Positions 8,842-50,756 of a DNA stretch of 64,000 bases are shown in pieces; positions within the stretch are counted from its first letter, which is position 1, and every line of letters starts with the position of its first letter. A program made the translations under genes and the position numbers. Source of the DNA: an uncultured Bacteroidales bacterium (GTDB lineage: Bacteria; Bacteroidota; Bacteroidia; Bacteroidales; Bacteroidaceae). The stretch is taken from positions 1 to 64,000 of the forward strand of contig CACZJU010000007.1 of assembly GCA_902781515.1 (NCBI GenBank), in the 5' to 3' direction. The notes below the pieces were generated by a model. It did not search any database and had not been told where the DNA came from. It saw only the letters and a list, made by a program, of their open reading frames with translations.

Positions 8842-8866
8842 TTTTCAATTTTCAATCTTCAATCTT
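8842..8866. repeat. TTTTCAA-type tandem tract over the serS stop codon
   Basis: Imperfect 7-bp repeats (TTTTCAA, TCTTCAA) that cover the serS stop codon. On the minus strand they encode the final KIED of SerS and fill most of the gap to the next gene. Confidence 0.7.
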
Positions 8867-10180
8867 AATAATATCTGTTCCCATGTAGGGCTGGAGGGCG
8901 GCGGGGATGCGGATGCCTTCGGGAGTCTGGTTGTTCTCCAACAGGGCAGCCACGATGCGGGGCAGAGCCAGAGCCGAACCATTCAGCGTGTGAGCCAGTT
9001 CGGTCTTCTTGTCAGCCTGGCGACGTATGCGGCACTTCAGACGGTTGGCCTGATAGGTGTCGAAGTTAGATACCGACGAAACCTCCAGCCAGCGCTTCTG
9101 TGCCTCAGAATATACCTCGAAGTCGTAGCAGATGGCACTGGTGAACGACTGGTCGCCGCCACACAGGCGCAGGATGCGGTAGGGCAGTTCCAGCTTCTTC
9201 AGCAGACCTTCCACATGTTCCAGCATCTCTTTGTGGCTCTCGCGAGAGTGCTCGGGAGTGTCTATGCGGACGATTTCCACTTTCGAGAACTCGTGCAGAC
9301 GGTTCAGGCCGCGCACGTCCTTACCGTAGGCTCCAGCCTCGCGACGGAAGCACTGGGTGTAGGCGCAGTTCTTGATGGGGAGCTCCTGTTCGGGGATTAT
9401 TACATCGCGATAGATGTTCGTCACGGGAACCTCGGCAGTGGGGATGAGGTAGAGGTCGTCAACCTCGCAGTGGTACATCTGTCCTTCTTTGTCGGGCAAT
9501 TGACCTGTGCCGTAGCCGCTCTCCTTGTTCACCACCGTAGGGGGCATTATCTCCTCGTAGCCGGCAGCGCGTGCCTCGTCGAGGAAGAAGTTGATGAGAG
9601 CCCTTTGCAGACGGGCACCCATACCACGATATACTGGGAATCCGGCACCTGTAATCTTCACTCCCAGAGCAAAGTCTATGAGGTTGTACTGCTTGGCAAG
9701 TTCCCAGTGGGGCAGCTTAGCCTCGGGCACTTCGGGGTTCGTGTCCCAGTTGCCTACGGTATCCACACCCTCCTTGCACTCCTTCAGGTTCGACTTCACC
9801 ACCCAGTTGTCCTCGGCACATGTGCCTTCGGGTACTTCGTCGTATGGGATGTTGGGGATTTGGCAGAGCAGGGTAGTGAGGCGTTTCTCGGCCTCCTCCT
9901 TCTGCTGTTCCAGTTCCTGTCCCTGCTGTTTCAGCGCTGCCACGCGAGCCTTCACCTCTTCGGCTTCCTCGCGCTTGCCCTGTTTCATCAGTCCGCCAAT
10001 CTCGGCAGCCAGTTTCTTTCCCTCGCTCAGGTTTTGGTCGAGCAGGGTCTGTGCCTGACGGCGTGTTTTGTCAACCTCTATAACTTCTGCTATTGCCTCG
10101 CGGGCACCTGCAAAATTCTTCTTCTCCAGTCCGCGAACAACGCGTTCCGTTTCCTCTGTAATCAGTCGTAATGTTAGCAT
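8852..10180 (-). CDS. serS: Seryl-tRNA synthetase
   Basis: A class II aminoacyl-tRNA synthetase that charges tRNA-Ser with serine in the cytosol. The 442 residues comprise an N-terminal antiparallel coiled-coil arm (about 28-115, rich in E, K and A) that grips the tRNA long arm, and a catalytic core. Class II motifs are visible: GAGFPVYRGMGARLQRAL (motif 1 region), FRREAGAYGKDVRGLNRLHE (motif 2), and LNGSALALPRIVAALLEN (motif 3). Length is slightly above the common 420-430. The last residues KIED come from a repeat tract. It is the first gene of the minus-strand group running down to mnmE. The upstream gap (10181-10430) holds a TACCTTTG -7 box at 10221-10228. Confidence 0.97.
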   Translation of the reverse strand: MLTLRLITEETERVVRGLEKKNFAGAREAIAEVIEVDKTRRQAQTLLDQNLSEGKKLAAEIGGLMKQGKREEAEEVKARVAALKQQGQELEQQKEEAEKRLTTLLCQIPNIPYDEVPEGTCAEDNWVVKSNLKECKEGVDTVGNWDTNPEVPEAKLPHWELAKQYNLIDFALGVKITGAGFPVYRGMGARLQRALINFFLDEARAAGYEEIMPPTVVNKESGYGTGQLPDKEGQMYHCEVDDLYLIPTAEVPVTNIYRDVIIPEQELPIKNCAYTQCFRREAGAYGKDVRGLNRLHEFSKVEIVRIDTPEHSRESHKEMLEHVEGLLKKLELPYRILRLCGGDQSFTSAICYDFEVYSEAQKRWLEVSSVSNFDTYQANRLKCRIRRQADKKTELAHTLNGSALALPRIVAALLENNQTPEGIRIPAALQPYMGTDIIKIED

Positions 10181-10220
10181 GTTGCTGTTATCTTTATACC
10201 TTATTTATATATACGTCCGG

Positions 10221-10228
10221 CAAAGGTA
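10221..10228 (-). promoter_or_regulatory. Probable serS promoter, -7 box
   Basis: Minus-strand TACCTTTG followed by CC, 40 bases upstream of the serS ATG. No matching TTTG is present at the expected -33 distance, so only the -7 box is supported. Confidence 0.5.
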
Positions 10229-10336
10229 CAAAAAAAATCATTATCCTTCCCTCTTTTCCCCAATTTTTTATAAGTTATCCTTAGATAATCGTCCTCGCCC
10301 GCCTCCTCTGCGAATAAAGGTAAAGGGCAAAAGAAA

Positions 10337-10373
10337 AAAGGACAGACCTCGCAGCGGAGTGGGTCTGTCCTTT
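10337..10373 (-). terminator. Terminator of the lipoprotein gene
   Basis: A perfect 12-bp stem (AAAGGACAGACC with GGTCTGTCCTTT) and a 13-base loop. On the minus strand it is followed by a T-rich run. It lies 57 bases after the stop codon of the lipoprotein gene. Confidence 0.88.
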
Positions 10374-10430
10374 GATATTTGTGCTATGGTTCAAAATTAA
10401 TCGTCTAATTTTGCATCGTGGTCTTTGACT

Positions 10431-10832
10431 TTATGGTACGAAACGGGTTTTAAAAAGATTTCTATCATCTGCTTTCTCTATCTTAAAATCGCATTTCTTC
10501 CCTTCGCTATTTTGGTATTTCGCCTTCCCTTCTCTATTTTGGTATTCCGTAATTTTTATACTTTCGTTAAAGTTTTTTGATTGGCAACTTATCGTATTTC
10601 CAGACAGCACCCATGTTCCACTTCGTATATCTTTTCCATTAATTGTGTAATACGACTTATCGTTATGAAAATCAAAAATAGGGGACTCATTGCTATTAGA
10701 TAATACCCATGTCCCAACAATTTCACTCTCGGTAATAATCGTTTCTTCATCATCGCCGCAGGAGGTGAGACCAATACTTAGCATTGCTACCATCATAATG
10801 AAGAGCAGGCTCATAAAATTTTTTTTGTTCAT
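10431..10832 (-). CDS. Small lipoprotein, lipocalin-like
   Basis: A 133-residue protein with a lipoprotein signal peptide: the lipobox ends at Cys25 (GLTSC) and is followed by GDDEE, the acidic tail that in Bacteroidota marks surface-exposed lipoproteins. The mature part has the short beta-strand rhythm of lipocalin-like proteins of this phylum: EIVGTWVLSNS, FDFHNDKSYYTING, GTWVLSGNTISC. It also holds a near-duplicate pair, EYQNREGKAKYQNSEGKK (residues about 97-114). No precise family or ligand can be assigned. The gene stands alone: a 12-bp terminator follows it, and a 243-base structured leader and a palindrome array precede it. The signal start resembles that of the LRR lipoprotein at 50898, which has the same type of array upstream. 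Confidence 0.7.
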   Translation of the reverse strand: MNKKNFMSLLFIMMVAMLSIGLTSCGDDEETIITESEIVGTWVLSNSNESPIFDFHNDKSYYTINGKDIRSGTWVLSGNTISCQSKNFNESIKITEYQNREGKAKYQNSEGKKCDFKIEKADDRNLFKTRFVP

Positions 10833-11075
10833 AATTGTTATTATTTAAGGTTGTGCAATATTGCTGTTCATTTATATTTCGCTGGCATCTGCACAAACAT
10901 AAGAAAGCGCAGAGCCCCACATATCTCCGACAGGCCTTCCACAGCCTATATATTCCTATGCGAAGTCTGCGCTTGCGCACACTCCAATCGGAATATATTC
11001 ATGCTCGTATTTTCTTCTTGCGAGGTGGAAGTTCGTCGGAGAAATTGAGCAAAAAATGTTTGTGTTCCGCTGAAC
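10833..11075 (-). promoter_or_regulatory. Long structured 5' leader of the lipoprotein gene
   Basis: If transcription starts near 11075, as the promoter at 11082-11112 predicts, the mRNA has a leader of about 243 bases. It holds a 9-bp closing stem (AAGCGCAGA at 10905-10913 with TCTGCGCTT at 10966-10974) that encloses a smaller AGGC/GCCT hairpin (10932-10947), and a TGTTC/GAACA hairpin near its 5' end. No conserved riboswitch class is recognised. A 76-codon frame crosses it without a convincing start. Confidence 0.4.
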
Positions 11076-11081
11076 ACGTTG

Positions 11082-11112
11082 CAAAGATAGGAAATTAATT
11101 TTATCGAGAAAA
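11082..11112 (-). promoter_or_regulatory. Promoter of the lipoprotein gene
   Basis: Minus-strand TATCTTTG (11082-11089) with TTTT, a one-base variant of the -33 TTTG, at 11109-11112 and a 19-base spacer. The palindrome array starts 85 bases further upstream. Confidence 0.65.
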
Positions 11113-11196
11113 AGAAATGGTGCAGAAATATTTCAATAAGGAATCAACGCTTTAGTTGTGATAGACCTGAAAAATGCGTGTTCTCTTGAAAATCTA

Positions 11197-11458
11197 AGGC
11201 CGCCCGTCTTACGGCAACAAGACCTAGGTCTTATGCCCACAAGGTCTAGACCTTATGGCGATAGGTTCTAGACCTTACGTCGATAGGTTCTAGAACCTTC
11301 AGCCTTAGGTTAACTTAACCTATCAACGTAAGTTAACTTAACCTCCGGCCTTAGGTTAACTTAACCTTCGACAGACGCGATAGTAATGCTTCCGTCGTAG
11401 CATTACTAATCCTTCGGGTGGAACGATAGTAATCCTTCGGCAGACGCGATAGTAATGC
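11197..11458. repeat. Array of 12 palindromic units, 22-23 bp period, with graded cores
   Basis: Dyad centres fall at about 11203, 11225, 11247, 11269, 11291, 11314, 11337, 11360, 11383, 11406, 11429 and 11452. Each unit is a 14-15 bp palindrome plus about 8 bp of spacer. The cores change in order: a decayed CGTCTT half-site, AAGACCTAGGTCTT, AAGGTCTAGACCTT, AGGTTCTAGACCTT, AGGTTCTAGAACCT, AGGTTAACTTAACCT (three copies, one with AAGTT), then four half-type units with ATAGTAATGC or its complement. There is no gene here. The array fills most of the gap between the lipoprotein promoter and the cydB terminator. Confidence 0.9.
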
Positions 11459-11462
11459 AAAG

Positions 11463-11490
11463 AAAGAGGCGGCCAGATGGTCGCCCTTTT
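11463..11490 (-). terminator. Terminator of the cyd operon
   Basis: Hairpin of AAAGAGGCGGCC with GGTCGCCCTTTT around an AGAT loop, with one mismatch and one bulge. It is followed on the minus strand by a TCTTTCTTT run and lies 34 bases after the cydB stop codon. Between them is a TTACTTA-type tandem tract (11490-11519). Confidence 0.7.
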
Positions 11491-11523
11491 ACTTATTACT
11501 TATTACTTTTTACTTTATCTATT

Positions 11524-12690
11524 TTAATAGGCGTGGTCGTGATTTATTTCGTCGAGGGTGAGGGACTTGCGGTCGATGGAGCGCCAGGCATAGACGATGT
11601 AGGCGAGGACGAAGGGGATGAGGAGCGATACGTAGAACATGGTGCGCAGGGTGAACTCGCTGGACGAGGAGTTCTGCATGGTGAGCGACGACTGAAGGTC
11701 GGCTGTGGAGGGGTAGTAGGCGGTGTTGTTCCAAGCGGTGAGCAGGAGCAGGACTGTGACGGTGACTACCACGCCGAAACCTACAACCCAGAAGCCGCGT
11801 TTCCATTCCTTGTGGAGCAATGTGCGCAGGATGCCGAAGAGCACGAACACCACACCCACGAGCAGCAGTACGAGCAGAGGCCACATCGTGAGGAGGTTGT
11901 GGAGATACTTGTAGGGCTCCATGAAGATGACGCCTGTCTCTGGGTCAACGGCATAGCCCTCGCACATGAGGATGTGTCCCACGAAAGCAAGGAACAGAGC
12001 AAGGAAGAGCAACGTGTTGTGCCATAGGGGCTGGAGAAAGCGGTTGTGAGTGTCGAACTCGGCATCGTCAACCTGCATGTGGACGTAGAGGCAGCCCAGA
12101 ATTCTTGCGAGGAAGAATACGGCAAGGCCCAGACAGAGGTTCCAGGGGTTGAGCAAGGCATCGAGTCCGTGCGAGGCATTTGCCCATGAGCTTTCAACGA
12201 GTACCCCCCTCCCGAAATCACCCTCGGGGGATAATAGGGGGGACGTATTAATGATGAAGTTGGAGCCGGTGAAGAAGGTGGCAACGGCGCCGCCCAAGAG
12301 CAGAGGACCGAGGATGCCGTTGATGACGAGCATCCATTGGAAAGTCTTGGCACCAAACAGGTTGCCCATCTTGTTCTGGAACTCGTAGCTGACGGCCTGA
12401 AGGACGAAGGAGAAGAGGATAATCATCCAAAGCCAGTAGGCACCGCCGAAGCTGGTGGAGTAGAATAGGGGATAGGATGCGAAGAAGGCTCCGCCGAAGG
12501 TGACAAGGGTGGTGAATGTGAACTCCCACTTGCGACCTGTGGCGTTCACCAACAAACGACGTTCATCAGGTGTGCGACCCAGCGAGAATATGAGTGAATT
12601 GGCTCCCTGCACGAACATGAGGAAGACGAGCAGCGCTGCCAGCAGTGCCACTACGAAGCACCAATAATGCTGTAAAAATGCGTATGTCAT
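11524..12690 (-). CDS. cydB: Cytochrome bd ubiquinol oxidase subunit II
   Basis: Subunit II of the high-affinity bd-type terminal oxidase in the inner membrane, which with CydA transfers electrons from quinol to oxygen. The protein has 388 residues with about 9 hydrophobic segments. Family signatures include SYEFQNK near 120-126, SSWANASHGLDALLNPWNLCLGLAVFFLAR (about 168-197, read in pieces), and AWNNTAYYPS near 318-327. Its start overlaps the cydA stop by 4 bases (ATGA at 12687-12690). A GC-rich repeat at 12203-12243 adds residues TSPLLSPEGDFGRG in a loop before the conserved WANASHG, so the protein carries a foreign insert in an extramembrane loop. A hairpin terminator follows. In anaerobes of this phylum the complex supports growth at trace oxygen. 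Confidence 0.95.
   Translation of the reverse strand: MTYAFLQHYWCFVVALLAALLVFLMFVQGANSLIFSLGRTPDERRLLVNATGRKWEFTFTTLVTFGGAFFASYPLFYSTSFGGAYWLWMIILFSFVLQAVSYEFQNKMGNLFGAKTFQWMLVINGILGPLLLGGAVATFFTGSNFIINTSPLLSPEGDFGRGVLVESSWANASHGLDALLNPWNLCLGLAVFFLARILGCLYVHMQVDDAEFDTHNRFLQPLWHNTLLFLALFLAFVGHILMCEGYAVDPETGVIFMEPYKYLHNLLTMWPLLVLLLVGVVFVLFGILRTLLHKEWKRGFWVVGFGVVVTVTVLLLLTAWNNTAYYPSTADLQSSLTMQNSSSSEFTLRTMFYVSLLIPFVLAYIVYAWRSIDRKSLTLDEINHDHAY
12203..12243. repeat. GC-rich palindromic repeat inserted in cydB
   Basis: The element carries CCCCCCTCCC at one end, an inner CCCTCGGGGG, and AGGGGGG at the other end, giving a GC-rich dyad. It is in frame, adding TSPLLSPEGDFGRG to CydB. Confidence 0.7.
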
Positions 12691-14249
12691 AGTTCAGGTC
12701 CTTTCTTAATAGCTTTACACATGATGTTGATTTCTACGGCAAGGAGGGCTGTGAAGAGGACGAGGAAGAGAAAGAATGTAGTCATCACAGCGCCTGAACC
12801 AAGGTGGCTGACACCCGCCCACGTGGGCAGCATGTCCTGAATGGTCCAAGGCTGACGACCGAACTCTGCCACCAGCCATCCTGCCTCGCTGACGATGTAG
12901 GAAATGGGGATGCAGGCGAGGGCAAAGACCCCCTTCCATCTCCCCCGAGAGGGAGTGTTATCCTTCCCCCCACGGGTGGATGGGAAGAGCATGATTATAA
13001 ATAATAGGACAAAGAGGCAACCGCCGCCCACCATGATGCGGAAGGCATAGAAGCAGACGGGGATGAAGGGCACCACCTGCGAGCGGTCCTTCACGAATCC
13101 GTAGCCGAAGTAGGGTATGTTGGAGTTGAGAGTTGAGAGTTTAGAGTTTAGAGTGGCTTCATCTGCGCCTTCTGCCTTTGCCTTGCGAAATTCGGCAAGC
13201 GCGGTGATGGCAAGTTGACCGCGTTCTATCTTCTCGTTGAGCGACAGTTCCTGAGTGCCGTCGGGACGGGTGTAGCCGTCGAGAATGTCGCGAATGCCAG
13301 GCACATAACCATGTATGTCGTTAGTGGCGAGGAACGATAGAGCGTAGGGAACGGCAATCTTTAAGGGAGCCTCGTCCTGCGCCTCATAGTCGGGCTGCTC
13401 AAAGGGATTGATGCCGGCAATGAGTGTCAACGGCTGGTCGGCTCCACCTTTGTACAGAGCCTCCATAGCTGCCAGTTTCATGGGCTGTGTCTGAGCCACA
13501 GTGAAGGCCGAATGGTGTCCCGAAGCCATCAGCATCAAAGAAGCTATGATACCGAAAATGGCTCCCACGCGAAGGCTCTTCTGCGCGAACTCCTCGTTGC
13601 GTTTTTTCAGGATGTACCACGAGCTTACGCCAACCACAAACACGGCTCCCAGCACCCATGCTGAGAGGACGGTGTGTACGAATTTATCGACTGCCACAGG
13701 CGACAGGGCAACATCGGCAAACGAAGTCATCTCGTTGCGCATGGTCTCAGGATTAAACTCTTGGCCTACAGGATATTGCATCCACGAATTGGCGACCAGA
13801 ATCCACCATGCGGAAATGGTGGCTCCAAGCCCCGTGAGCCAAGTCGAAGCAAGGTGGAATCCCTTCGAAACCTTGTTCCATCCGAAGAACATCACTGCCA
13901 CGAAGGTGCTTTCCATGAAGAAGGCCACAATGCCTTCCACTGCCAGCGGAGCGCCGAAGATGTCGCCCACGAGGTACGAATAGTTGCTCCAGTTGGTGCC
14001 GAACTCAAACTCTAGAATGAGACCTGTGGCAATGCCCATAGCGAAATTGATGCCGAAGAGGCGTTGCCAATACTTTGCCGTCTGTTTCCAGAAGTCCTTT
14101 CCAGTGCGGTAATAGAGCGTCTCCATGATGCCCATTACTACAGCAAGTCCCAGTGTTAATGGGACGAACAGCCAATGATAGATGGCGGTCAGCGCGAACT
14201 GCGCCCGTGCCCAATCTACTGCTGCGAGGTCAATGTTTAATAGATTCAT
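12687..14249 (-). CDS. cydA: Cytochrome bd ubiquinol oxidase subunit I
   Basis: Catalytic subunit of the bd oxidase, holding hemes b558, b595 and d. The 520 residues include the expected ligands: a His in AIYHWLF (residue 25), a second His in DKFVHTVLS (about 191), and a Met in FRIMVGGG (about 395). The GRQPW motif (WLVAEFGRQPWTIQDMLPTW) is present near 450. Two foreign inserts are visible. One is encoded by 7-bp repeats at 13122-13154 (TLNSKLSTLNSN, in the variable Q-loop region). The other is a GC-rich repeat at 12929-12984 (FPSTRGGKDNTPSRGRW), which replaces the short loop between two membrane helices. Both keep the frame and lie outside conserved helices, so activity is probably kept. It overlaps DUF4492 upstream by 4 bases and cydB downstream by 4. 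Confidence 0.96.
   Translation of the reverse strand: MNLLNIDLAAVDWARAQFALTAIYHWLFVPLTLGLAVVMGIMETLYYRTGKDFWKQTAKYWQRLFGINFAMGIATGLILEFEFGTNWSNYSYLVGDIFGAPLAVEGIVAFFMESTFVAVMFFGWNKVSKGFHLASTWLTGLGATISAWWILVANSWMQYPVGQEFNPETMRNEMTSFADVALSPVAVDKFVHTVLSAWVLGAVFVVGVSSWYILKKRNEEFAQKSLRVGAIFGIIASLMLMASGHHSAFTVAQTQPMKLAAMEALYKGGADQPLTLIAGINPFEQPDYEAQDEAPLKIAVPYALSFLATNDIHGYVPGIRDILDGYTRPDGTQELSLNEKIERGQLAITALAEFRKAKAEGADEATLNSKLSTLNSNIPYFGYGFVKDRSQVVPFIPVCFYAFRIMVGGGCLFVLLFIIMLFPSTRGGKDNTPSRGRWKGVFALACIPISYIVSEAGWLVAEFGRQPWTIQDMLPTWAGVSHLGSGAVMTTFFLFLVLFTALLAVEINIMCKAIKKGPEL
12929..12984. repeat. GC-rich palindromic repeat inserted in cydA
   Basis: Two GC-rich dyads (CTCCCCCGAGAGGGAG and CCCCCCACGGGTGG) sit inside cydA, in frame, in an extramembrane loop. 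Composition differs sharply from the flanks, and the element resembles those at 7919-8010 and 12203-12243. Confidence 0.7.
13122..13154. repeat. 7-bp tandem tract inserted in cydA
   Basis: Imperfect GAGTTTA/GAGTTGA heptamers. On the coding strand they read as TLNSKLSTLNSN, which is absent from typical CydA at this place. Confidence 0.75.
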
Positions 14250-14606: not shown

Positions 14607-15074
14607 ATGGAAAGAACCCTAGTACTCCTGAAGCCTTCCGTAATCAAGCGAATGCTGATGGGTGAGATTATCACCAGATTTGAACGTAAAGGCCTCAGAA
14701 TTATAGGAATGAAGATGCTCTATATGACCGATGAATTGGTTGAAGAGCACTATTCCCACCTTAAAGATAAACCTTTCTTCCCACTGCTTAAAGCCTCAAT
14801 GCAAGCCACTCCGGTGGTCGCTTTGTGTATAGAGGGTGTTGAAGTCGTTCGCGTGGTTAGAGCTATGGCAGGTGTCACAAACGGACGAAATGCAGCCATC
14901 GGAACCATTCGCGGCGACTATGCAATGAGCAACCAGCAGAACATTGTACACGCCAGTGACGGTGTGTTTGCTGCCAGAGAGGAGATTGAGCGATTCTTCA
15001 AACCTGAAGAAGTGTTCGACTTCGGCGACCTGAACTTCAATGCAATATATGCAGTTGACGAAGTTGACATGTAA
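14607..15074 (+). CDS. ndk: Nucleoside diphosphate kinase
   Basis: Transfers the terminal phosphate between nucleoside triphosphates and diphosphates through a phospho-histidine, keeping nucleotide pools balanced in the cytosol. The protein has 155 residues, typical for the family. The catalytic histidine is His115 in NIVHASDG, and the nucleotide-binding segments TLVLLKPSVIKR (4-15) and GTIRGDYA (99-106) are present. The ATG at 14607 is 28 bases after a strong promoter. It heads the plus-strand run that continues with the M23 peptidase gene 49 bases downstream. Confidence 0.97.
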   Translation: MERTLVLLKPSVIKRMLMGEIITRFERKGLRIIGMKMLYMTDELVEEHYSHLKDKPFFPLLKASMQATPVVALCIEGVEVVRVVRAMAGVTNGRNAAIGTIRGDYAMSNQQNIVHASDGVFAAREEIERFFKPEEVFDFGDLNFNAIYAVDEVDM

Positions 15075-36969: not shown

Positions 36970-37060
36970 AACATTACTAATGTTCGACGCTGAACATTAC
37001 TAATGTTTGGGGCAATACATTACTAATGTTTGACGCCATGCACTACTAATGCATGGCGCC
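36970..37060. repeat. Four-unit palindrome array, 23-bp period
   Basis: AACATTACTAATGTT occurs perfectly at 36970-36984 and 36993-37007, with a near copy at 37016-37030 and a variant (TGCACTACTAATGCA) at 37039-37053. Centres are exactly 23 bases apart (36977, 37000, 37023, 37046), and the spacers are 8 bases. The last unit extends to CGCCATGC/GCATGGCG, a strong hairpin. It lies between convergent genes and may also end transcription. Confidence 0.9.
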
Positions 37061-50393: not shown

Positions 50394-50495
50394 AGGTTAA
50401 CTTAACCTATCGACACAAGTTCTAGAACCTATCGCCATAAGGTCTAGACCTTATCGCCGTAAGACGGGCGTCTTATTGCCGTAAGACGGTAGGGC
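50394..50495. repeat. Five-unit palindrome array, 22 bp period, reverse copy of the 11197 type
   Basis: Cores in order are AGGTTAACTTAACCT (centre 50401), AAGTTCTAGAACCT (50423), AAGGTCTAGACCTT (50445), AAGACGGGCGTCTT (50467) and a decayed AAGACGG (about 50489). Spacers such as ATCGCCAT and ATCGCCGT are reverse complements of those in the 11197-11458 array. It lies upstream of the LRR lipoprotein gene at 50898. Confidence 0.9.
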
Positions 50496-50524: not shown

Positions 50525-50756
50525 TGACAATGTGTAGACTACGACGCATTATCGCATTATCGCATTATCACATTATCATTTATGAAAATGCACATTGTCA
50601 TAGCTTAGAGATTATAAAGTATATTATATATTATAATATATATATTATAATATATAATATAAAATATTTACTTATAATATGATAGTATAAAGCAACCAAG
50701 AAATCCATCACTAGAATACCAAATGATAACGTGATAATGTGATAATGTGATAGCGC
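50525..50756. repeat. Nested inverted-repeat element with octamer arms
   Basis: Left arm: four copies of GCATTATC (the last ACATTATC) at 50546-50577. Right arm: four copies of GATAATGT-type octamers at 50725-50756 in inverted sense. The left arm is itself enclosed by a perfect 10-bp inverted repeat (TGACAATGTG at 50525-50534 and CACATTGTCA at 50591-50600). The 147 bases between the arms include a 60-base TATAAT-type palindromic core. No coding sequence. The element could be MITE-like or a structural DNA site. Confidence 0.75.

What the first reader, a model, noticed from the sequence alone, without database searches (positions are those of the whole stretch)
11197..11458. Twelve-unit palindrome array with a 22-23 bp period and a core that changes stepwise
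Dyad centres keep a steady 22-23 base step across 250 bases, about two turns of DNA, so successive dyads face the same side of the helix. The cores are not identical. They pass from AAGACC-type to AAGGTC, AGGTTC, AGGTTAA and then ATTACTA, each sharing letters with its neighbour, while the 8-base spacers stay similar. This is not a CRISPR (no constant repeat, spacers too short) and not a simple tandem repeat. It may be an operator ladder for a dimeric regulator family, or a transcribed chain of small hairpins. The array ends 85 bases upstream of a predicted promoter, the usual place for activator sites. I know of no described element with this layout.
Basis: partly seen in the sequence, partly recalled or inferred. 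Interest (0 to 1): 0.85.

Follow-up and report, generated by a model that had tools for sequence, protein, structure and literature searches.

The report
Dispersed arrays of 22-bp palindromes
The array is real and is one of many copies of a repeated, non-coding DNA element scattered between genes; related gut bacteria carry arrays of much the same spacing but mostly different palindrome letters, which suggests that the spacing, not the wording, is what matters.

Summary
The array scores 74.3; the best of 2000 shuffles scores 18.7. Nine of twelve units match as dyads at 5 or more of 7 arm positions; units 9, 11, 12 are weak. The grading is real: half-site identity falls from 5.0 to 1.9 of 7 between lags 1 and 7.

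It is not a local operator ladder. The window holds two more arrays and the host genome many, often in the same module order. None of 18 relatives with a full-length cydB shows a comparable array in the flanks held. The array plus the hairpin beside cydB is one of three copies of a repeat; flanks of this copy are unrelated.

Arrays with a 21-23 bp period occur between genes in 10 of 24 sampled genus members and in named Bacteroidales loci, mostly with unrelated cores; 200 kb of E. coli shows no peak.

Best reading: a REP/BIME-like dispersed extragenic repeat whose unit is a symmetric double-stranded DNA site spaced at about two helical turns. No binding protein or mobiliser was found; a Y1 transposase is not detected in this genome. 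Function remains inferred.

The parts
11199..11218 (-). left end of the element: half unit (CCGCCCGTCTT) that also reads as a terminator-like hairpin on the minus strand
   Evidence: three-copy alignment: similarity with the other two copies begins here; terminator scan
11219..11232 (.). unit 2, AAGACCTAGGTCTT, 7/7 dyad
11241..11254 (.). unit 3, AAGGTCTAGACCTT, 7/7 dyad
11263..11276 (.). unit 4, AGGTTCTAGACCTT, 5/7, a hybrid of its neighbours
11285..11298 (.). unit 5, AGGTTCTAGAACCT, 7/7 dyad
11307..11321 (.). unit 6, AGGTTAACTTAACCT, 7/7 dyad (15 bp)
11330..11344 (.). unit 7, AAGTTAACTTAACCT, 6/7
11353..11367 (.). unit 8, AGGTTAACTTAACCT, 7/7 dyad
11376..11459 (.). units 9-12, second module (TAGTAATGC / AGCATTACTAATCCT type), dyad matches 4,6,3,4 of 7
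   Evidence: direct repeats D1 and D3
11468..11485 (.). hairpin GGCGGCC-AGAT-GGTCGCC at the right end, terminator-like, beside the cydB stop; similar in the other two copies of the element
   Evidence: cydB named by Pfam PF02322
36970..37053 (.). second array in the window, 4 units AACATTACTAATGTT-type, 23 bp step, almost fills a 108-bp convergent intergenic region
50394..50489 (.). third array, same module order as the main array in inverse orientation

Best explanation
A dispersed, non-coding extragenic repeat that behaves like REP/BIME elements. The unit is a 14-15 bp two-fold-symmetric site plus a 7-8 bp spacer, repeated head to tail at about 22 bp. Arrays grow and shrink by whole units, form hybrid cores by recombination or slippage between neighbouring units (hence the stepwise change), and also spread as modules to other intergenic sites, often near gene ends. 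I infer that the symmetric unit is read as double-stranded DNA by a dimeric protein, and that the two-turn spacing lets neighbouring dimers sit on roughly one face; the effect would be on transcription 3' ends or local chromosome structure. Shown by sequence: dispersal, intergenic site, symmetry, period, graded order in this genome, turnover between species. Inferred: how units are gained and spread, the protein, the effect, the mobilising enzyme.
For: Dispersal in the own genome: 97 forward hits to AGGTTAANTTAACCT at up to 2 mismatches against 3 for the reversed control; 26 BLAST matches, self included; listed arrays often share modules in the same order. Three-copy element with a conserved left end and right hairpin, unrelated flanks around the window copy, and different unit numbers. 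Paralogous arrays differ by tandem copies of a 23-bp unit that is a left/right hybrid. Intergenic: 45 of 46 arrays in 14 sampled sets; 17 of 45 lie between convergent genes against 89 of 454 intergenic regions of 60 bp or more. Period, counts of arrays scoring 20 or more: own+G017+G001 peak 21 (at 23; elsewhere mostly 0-6, but 10 at 45, twice the period); G012 peak 12 (elsewhere 0-1); other congeners peak 13 at 22 (elsewhere 1-8); 80 named serS loci peak 17 at 21 (elsewhere 0-7, but 10 at 34) (exact triplets peak at 22 to 22.5). Cores differ between most of these sets. E. coli, 200 kb: 1 at 22, no peak. G012 has 390 adjacent-unit pairs against 1-3 in controls. Symmetry: own dyad above 8-nt-loop hairpin in 25 of 33 loci.
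Against: No binding protein was found. In G012 the unit is not fully symmetric: the third position is A/A or T/T in 40 of 74 units and complementary in 18, so the unit has polarity, which a simple homodimer site would not need. The own-dyad preference depends partly on how arrays are recruited: with hairpin-based recruitment it reverses in four of the five genome sets, G001 being the exception. In 13 of 24 sampled genus members the stretches (3.4-80 kb each) held no array over threshold, G011's only one lies in coding sequence, and three of the ten positives rest on one array each (G003, G013, G016). On contig C1 of the own genome the excess is small: 4 arrays against 1 and 2 at control periods. 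Some arrays, mainly in G012 and G024, end in T-rich flanks as terminators do.
Confidence: 0.62

Rival explanations
1. Transcribed chains of hairpins acting as terminators or 3'-end stabilisers of mRNA. Adjacent palindromes can pair with each other as stems of up to 14 bp.
For: Lean to gene 3' ends and convergent regions. The 36970 array almost fills a 108-bp convergent gap. T-rich array flanks in G012 and G024. Both ends of the main element score as terminator-like. The array folds to -92 and -104 kcal/mol on the two strands (no shuffle control was run for these). Own-dyad symmetry does not exclude pairing of whole neighbouring units; outer-arm pairing is only a little lower than own-dyad matching in G000 C7 (5.29 against 5.88 of 7).
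Against: No clear excess of G-U pairs (53 of 285 non-complementary positions; about 1 in 6 would arise by chance at equal base composition; G017 alone is higher, 13 of 44). Own-dyad symmetry exceeds 8-nt-loop hairpins in 25 of 33 loci. RNA pairing gives no evident reason for a fixed 22-bp period. T-run flanks are rare in G000, G001 and G017 (4 of 60 ends).
Confidence: 0.2
2. Operator ladder for one regulator of the adjacent genes.
For: Dyad symmetry and a two-turn period fit cooperative dimers.
Against: Dispersed family; no comparable array by cydB in 18 of 18 relatives with full-length hits; no target promoter found (sigma-70 consensus only); many different cores in one genome.
Confidence: 0.04
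3. Purely mutational product: slippage and template switching in short inverted repeats make and repair palindromes, with no function and no trans-acting factor.
For: Hybrid cores and unit gains; neighbour similarity decays with lag in G000; symmetric changes are what template switching would give (inference).
Against: Does not explain the 21-23 bp peak in sets with mostly unrelated cores, the intergenic limits, or shared modules at other loci.
Confidence: 0.14

Closest known systems
REP / BIME repeats (repetitive extragenic palindromes)
   Same: Short palindromes, extragenic, many copies, clustered at regular spacing, sequence differing between species, often near gene ends
   Different: No constant GTAG or CGTC tag seen in the listed units (by inspection); palindrome 14-15 bp with no loop rather than the 20-40 bp given in PMC3733652 (passages read); Y1 transposase (PF01797) not detected in 4 of the 6 array carriers covered (G000, G001, G002, G012), but present in G013 and marginal in G003; graded cores within one array
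PINSR, the 188-bp Prevotella intermedia/nigrescens group repeat (PMC4755523; passages read)
   Same: Intergenic, highly amplified repeat in a related lineage, judged non-coding by its authors, no known mobiliser
   Different: Described as one 188-bp incomplete repeat without terminal inverted repeats; its consensus is only in a figure that is not held, so I could not test whether it is built of 22-bp dyads
Dispersed palindromic sites of chromosome-organising proteins (Noc, SlmA, ParB/sopC), recalled, not tested
   Same: 14-16 bp palindromes, dispersed (Noc, SlmA) or in a tandem array at integral helical turns (sopC)
   Different: Here dispersed AND tandem, with several cores per genome; no cognate protein known
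Intrinsic terminators
   Same: Hairpin-forming, gene 3' ends, some with T-runs
   Different: Many units, most array ends lack a T-run, fixed period of about 22 bp

Membership tests
REP/BIME | High-copy extragenic palindromes | tested here: met
   97 hits against 3 in control; 45 of 46 arrays intergenic
REP/BIME | GTAG or CGTC tag at one end of a 20-40 bp stem-loop | tested here: not met
   unit list shows variable 8-bp spacers and 14-15 bp cores, no constant tag (by inspection)
REP/BIME | Cognate RAYT (Y1 transposase) in the genome | tested here: inconclusive
   PF01797 not detected in the own genome or in carriers G001, G002, G012; detected in carrier G013 (E 2.2e-18, 2 matches) and marginally in G003 (2.2e-4); carriers G016, G017, G022, G024 were not in that search. 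The own assembly is 86% complete, so absence is not certain
CRISPR | Constant repeat with unique spacers of usual length | tested here: not met
   cores change, spacers 8 bp
MITE | Terminal inverted repeats and target-site duplication | tested here: inconclusive
   ends carry GGCCGCC and GGCGGCC in the main copy, no obvious duplication in the flanks (by inspection)
Intrinsic terminator | GC-rich hairpin followed by a T-run | tested here: inconclusive
   both ends of the main element match the scan, which finds 4 sites in the region against a mean of 2.5 in shuffles; TTTT near only 4 of 36 array ends in G000 and 6 of 26 in G012
Known structured RNA | Match to an Rfam family | tested here: not met
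   no gathering-score match in 9500-13500
Operator array of a dimeric regulator | A protein that binds the unit | not testable with these tools
   none identified

The most novel reading that the evidence does not exclude
A class of chromosome-wide DNA site arrays in Bacteroidales, not found described in my eight literature searches, in which the geometry (symmetric site about every 22 bp, two helical turns) is conserved while the site sequence is re-invented lineage by lineage, because a rapidly evolving dimeric DNA-binding protein co-evolves with its arrays. At two sites beside a homologous gene (90% and 88% identical) both species keep an array but with largely different core sets.
Probability: 0.25. 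Interest if true: 0.85.

Novelty: new variant of a known kind. Interest (0 to 1): 0.57.

Why it matters
REP-like repeats are usually defined by their sequence, tag and transposase. Here the constant feature across species is a spacing of about 22 bp, while most cores differ. That makes an untested question concrete: what reads a palindrome every two helical turns, and why is its wording free to drift? It also warns that sequence-similarity searches will miss relatives of such elements: BLAST of this array found matches in 3 of 41 genomes, all three among the 25 genus members, own included, whereas the dyad-period scan found intergenic arrays in 10 of 24 genus members sampled, own included.

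Tried and rejected
Local operator ladder: rejected on dispersal and lack of a counterpart by cydB. RAYT-driven REP: not supported for this genome, but not excluded for the group (hits in carriers G013 and, marginally, G003). Phage origin: two exact patterns gave 0 hits each in viral contigs; other cores were not searched there. Rfam: none. Tyrosine-recombinase-type sites (arm-8 bp-arm): considered, because arms flank an 8-bp spacer, but dyad symmetry is stronger than cross-spacer symmetry in 25 of 33 loci. Orientation in G012 against gene direction: 12 codirectional, 6 opposed in tandem contexts, not decisive. Own-versus-neighbour discordance test: the result depends on the recruitment method, so I do not lean on it. 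The gene caller in my scripts is crude: it missed the ORF 10431-10832 that the ORF listing shows; that ORF looks like a lipoprotein to me and has only a sub-threshold Pfam match. Array counts use a score threshold of 20; some listed arrays are AT-rich or doubtful, and one of the 15 in the named loci is a tRNA gene.

Literature: eight searches (one search returned nothing) listed no paper whose title or shown abstract start describes a 22-bp dyad array in this group. From four papers I saw passages (PMC4755523, PMC8040213, PMC3733652, PMC6006769); the rest only as listings. Supplements were not read.

I left the odds as they were.

Full report
What is there. The stretch 11197-11459 holds twelve 14-15 bp units at 22-23 bp steps with 8-bp spacers. 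Nine are dyads at 5 or more of 7 arm positions in the best register. The chain scores 74.3; 2000 first-order Markov shuffles of the same bases reach at most 18.7. Half-site identity between units falls steadily with distance along the array in this genome, so the stepwise change is real. In G001 it does not fall with lag (4.16 at lag 1, 4.12 at lag 6) and in G017 it falls only at lag 4, so grading is not universal.

The array is one of many. Tandem Repeats Finder and a dyad-chain scanner find two more arrays in the window, at 36970-37053 and 50394-50489, the latter in the same module order and inverse orientation. The own genome holds 97 forward matches to one core at up to two mismatches, against 3 for the reversed control, and 26 BLAST matches to the array, self included. 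The arrays listed, which come from 434 kb plus loci recruited by pattern or BLAST, reuse the same modules (AAGAC.., AAGGTCT.., AGGTTCT.., AGGTTAA.., AGGTTATAT.., AGGGATA/AGGATTA/AGCATTA..). The order is often the same but not always: in L005 and L011, for example, the blocks are joined differently. The last class tends to lie at array ends.

It is a unit of dispersal. Three loci (C7:11.2 kb, C7:130.4 kb, C16:40.1 kb) share a left end at CCGCCCGTCTTACGGCAA and a right end that includes AAAGAAAGAGGCGGCC and the following hairpin. They differ in unit number. Flanks of the window copy are unrelated to the other two, which share a further 190 bp or so. The hairpin that looks like the cydB terminator is therefore part of the element. 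Paralogous arrays at C7:91.5 kb, C8:68.1 kb and C25:22.7 kb differ by tandem copies of a hybrid unit, which points to recombination or slippage between neighbours as the source of graded cores (inference).

Its neighbours. Pfam names the flanking genes: cytochrome bd oxidase subunit II (cydB, 11524-12690 minus), seryl-tRNA synthetase (serS, 8852-10180 minus) and nucleoside diphosphate kinase (ndk, 14607-15074 plus); the ORF 10431-10832 minus has only a sub-threshold lipocalin-like match.

It is not a conserved regulatory site of its neighbours. The cydB search matched 21 of 41 genomes. I scanned the 19 full-length loci (own genome and 18 relatives); only the own genome shows a strong array. 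Weak two-unit chains appear in L050 (15.5), L054 (15.5) and, AT-rich, L062 (19.6). Flanks held are 1.5 kb on the 3' side for most and at least 0.5 kb for all. The two remaining hits, with distant homologues, were not in that scan. Among 11 array sites with a homologous flanking gene in another sampled genome, 2 have an array there too, with largely different core sets; synteny at the other nine was not checked further.

Geometry recurs with other letters. In sampled stretches of 24 members of the genus (own included; G020 was not sampled), 10 show at least one intergenic array over the threshold, with cores such as AATGGTTAACCATT (G012, G024), CTCCCCTAGGCGAG (G002), TTTCTGCWGCAGAAA (G022) and TTCATCGCGATGAA (G013). 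Three of the ten (G003, G013, G016) rest on a single array. One further genome, G011, has its only array in coding sequence; 13 show none in 3.4-80 kb each. G012 holds 390 adjacent-unit pairs genome-wide against 1-3 in controls. In the 80 best loci around serS, from named records of Bacteroidaceae, Prevotellaceae and relatives (594 loci matched, 80 kept), 15 arrays pass against 1.2 expected from shuffles and 2-4 at control periods; 14 are intergenic and 1 is a tRNA gene. When the period is varied from 15 to 45, counts peak at 21-23 in four sets, which may overlap in species, and exact triplets peak at 22 to 22.5. Lesser maxima are 10 at 45 in the own group (twice the period) and 10 at 34 in the named loci. 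Sixty kb of a genome from another family (G026) showed no peak. E. coli K-12, 200 kb, shows 1 chain at 22 and no peak.

DNA or RNA level. Intergenic position with a lean to convergent regions (17 convergent, 21 tandem, 7 divergent of 45 arrays, against 89, 245, 120 of 454 intergenic regions) suits both terminators and REP-like repeats. In loci recruited by pattern or BLAST, own-dyad symmetry scores above 8-nt-loop hairpins in 25 of 33, below in 6, equal in 2; recruiting by hairpins instead reverses the preference in four of five sets. G-U pairs make up 53 of 285 non-complementary positions, about what chance gives. A fixed two-turn period is natural for proteins on DNA and has no evident reason in RNA (inference). 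Against a simple homodimer site stands G012, where the unit has polarity: the third position is A/A or T/T in 40 of 74 units.

Mechanism, with status. Shown: dispersed, intergenic, symmetric, periodic, graded by neighbour similarity in this genome, turning over between species. Inferred: read as double-stranded DNA by a dimer; spread by recombination between units and by an unknown copying step. Unknown: the protein, the effect on the cell. Y1 transposases, the known partners of REPs, were not detected in the own genome or in carriers G001, G002 and G012, but are present in carrier G013 and marginal in G003; four other carriers were not covered. Assemblies are incomplete.

Taxonomy. The closest named serS loci (84% identity) come from uncultured Bacteroidaceae and Prevotellaceae assemblies, several labelled from ruminants.

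Verdict.

Noticed in passing
G000 C7:91643-91697 (locus L090): One palindrome of an array is split at its centre by a 43-bp insert that paralogous arrays at C8 and C25 lack; no close second copy of the insert in the pieces searched.
   Followed up: partly
window 50611-50680: Long alternating TATA-rich stretch next to the third array.
   Followed up: no
window 11489-11515: About four copies of the heptamer TTACTTA directly beside the element's right hairpin and the cydB stop; heptamer repeats occur at a number of other places in the window.
   Followed up: no
G017 C6:56651 and 106424: Arrays of longer hairpins (GTGGCACA..TGTGCCAC) found at the same period, apparently a different palindrome family.
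   Followed up: no
G012 C1, oriented units: The G012 unit is a polar 22-bp repeat, AAAGGTTAACCATTATKGCC, whose neighbours mostly share orientation (30 of 38 pairs with both orientations defined).
   Followed up: partly
L200 (Bacteroidaceae MAG, horse feces) 4662 and 13746: Two nearly identical three-unit arrays of AAGTTGTACAACTT flanked by A-runs and T-runs, in one 21-kb locus, looking like bidirectional terminators.
   Followed up: no
L153, L185, L186, L187 (short contigs of G018 and G005): These fetched contigs read wholly as N and were lost from the sample.
   Followed up: no
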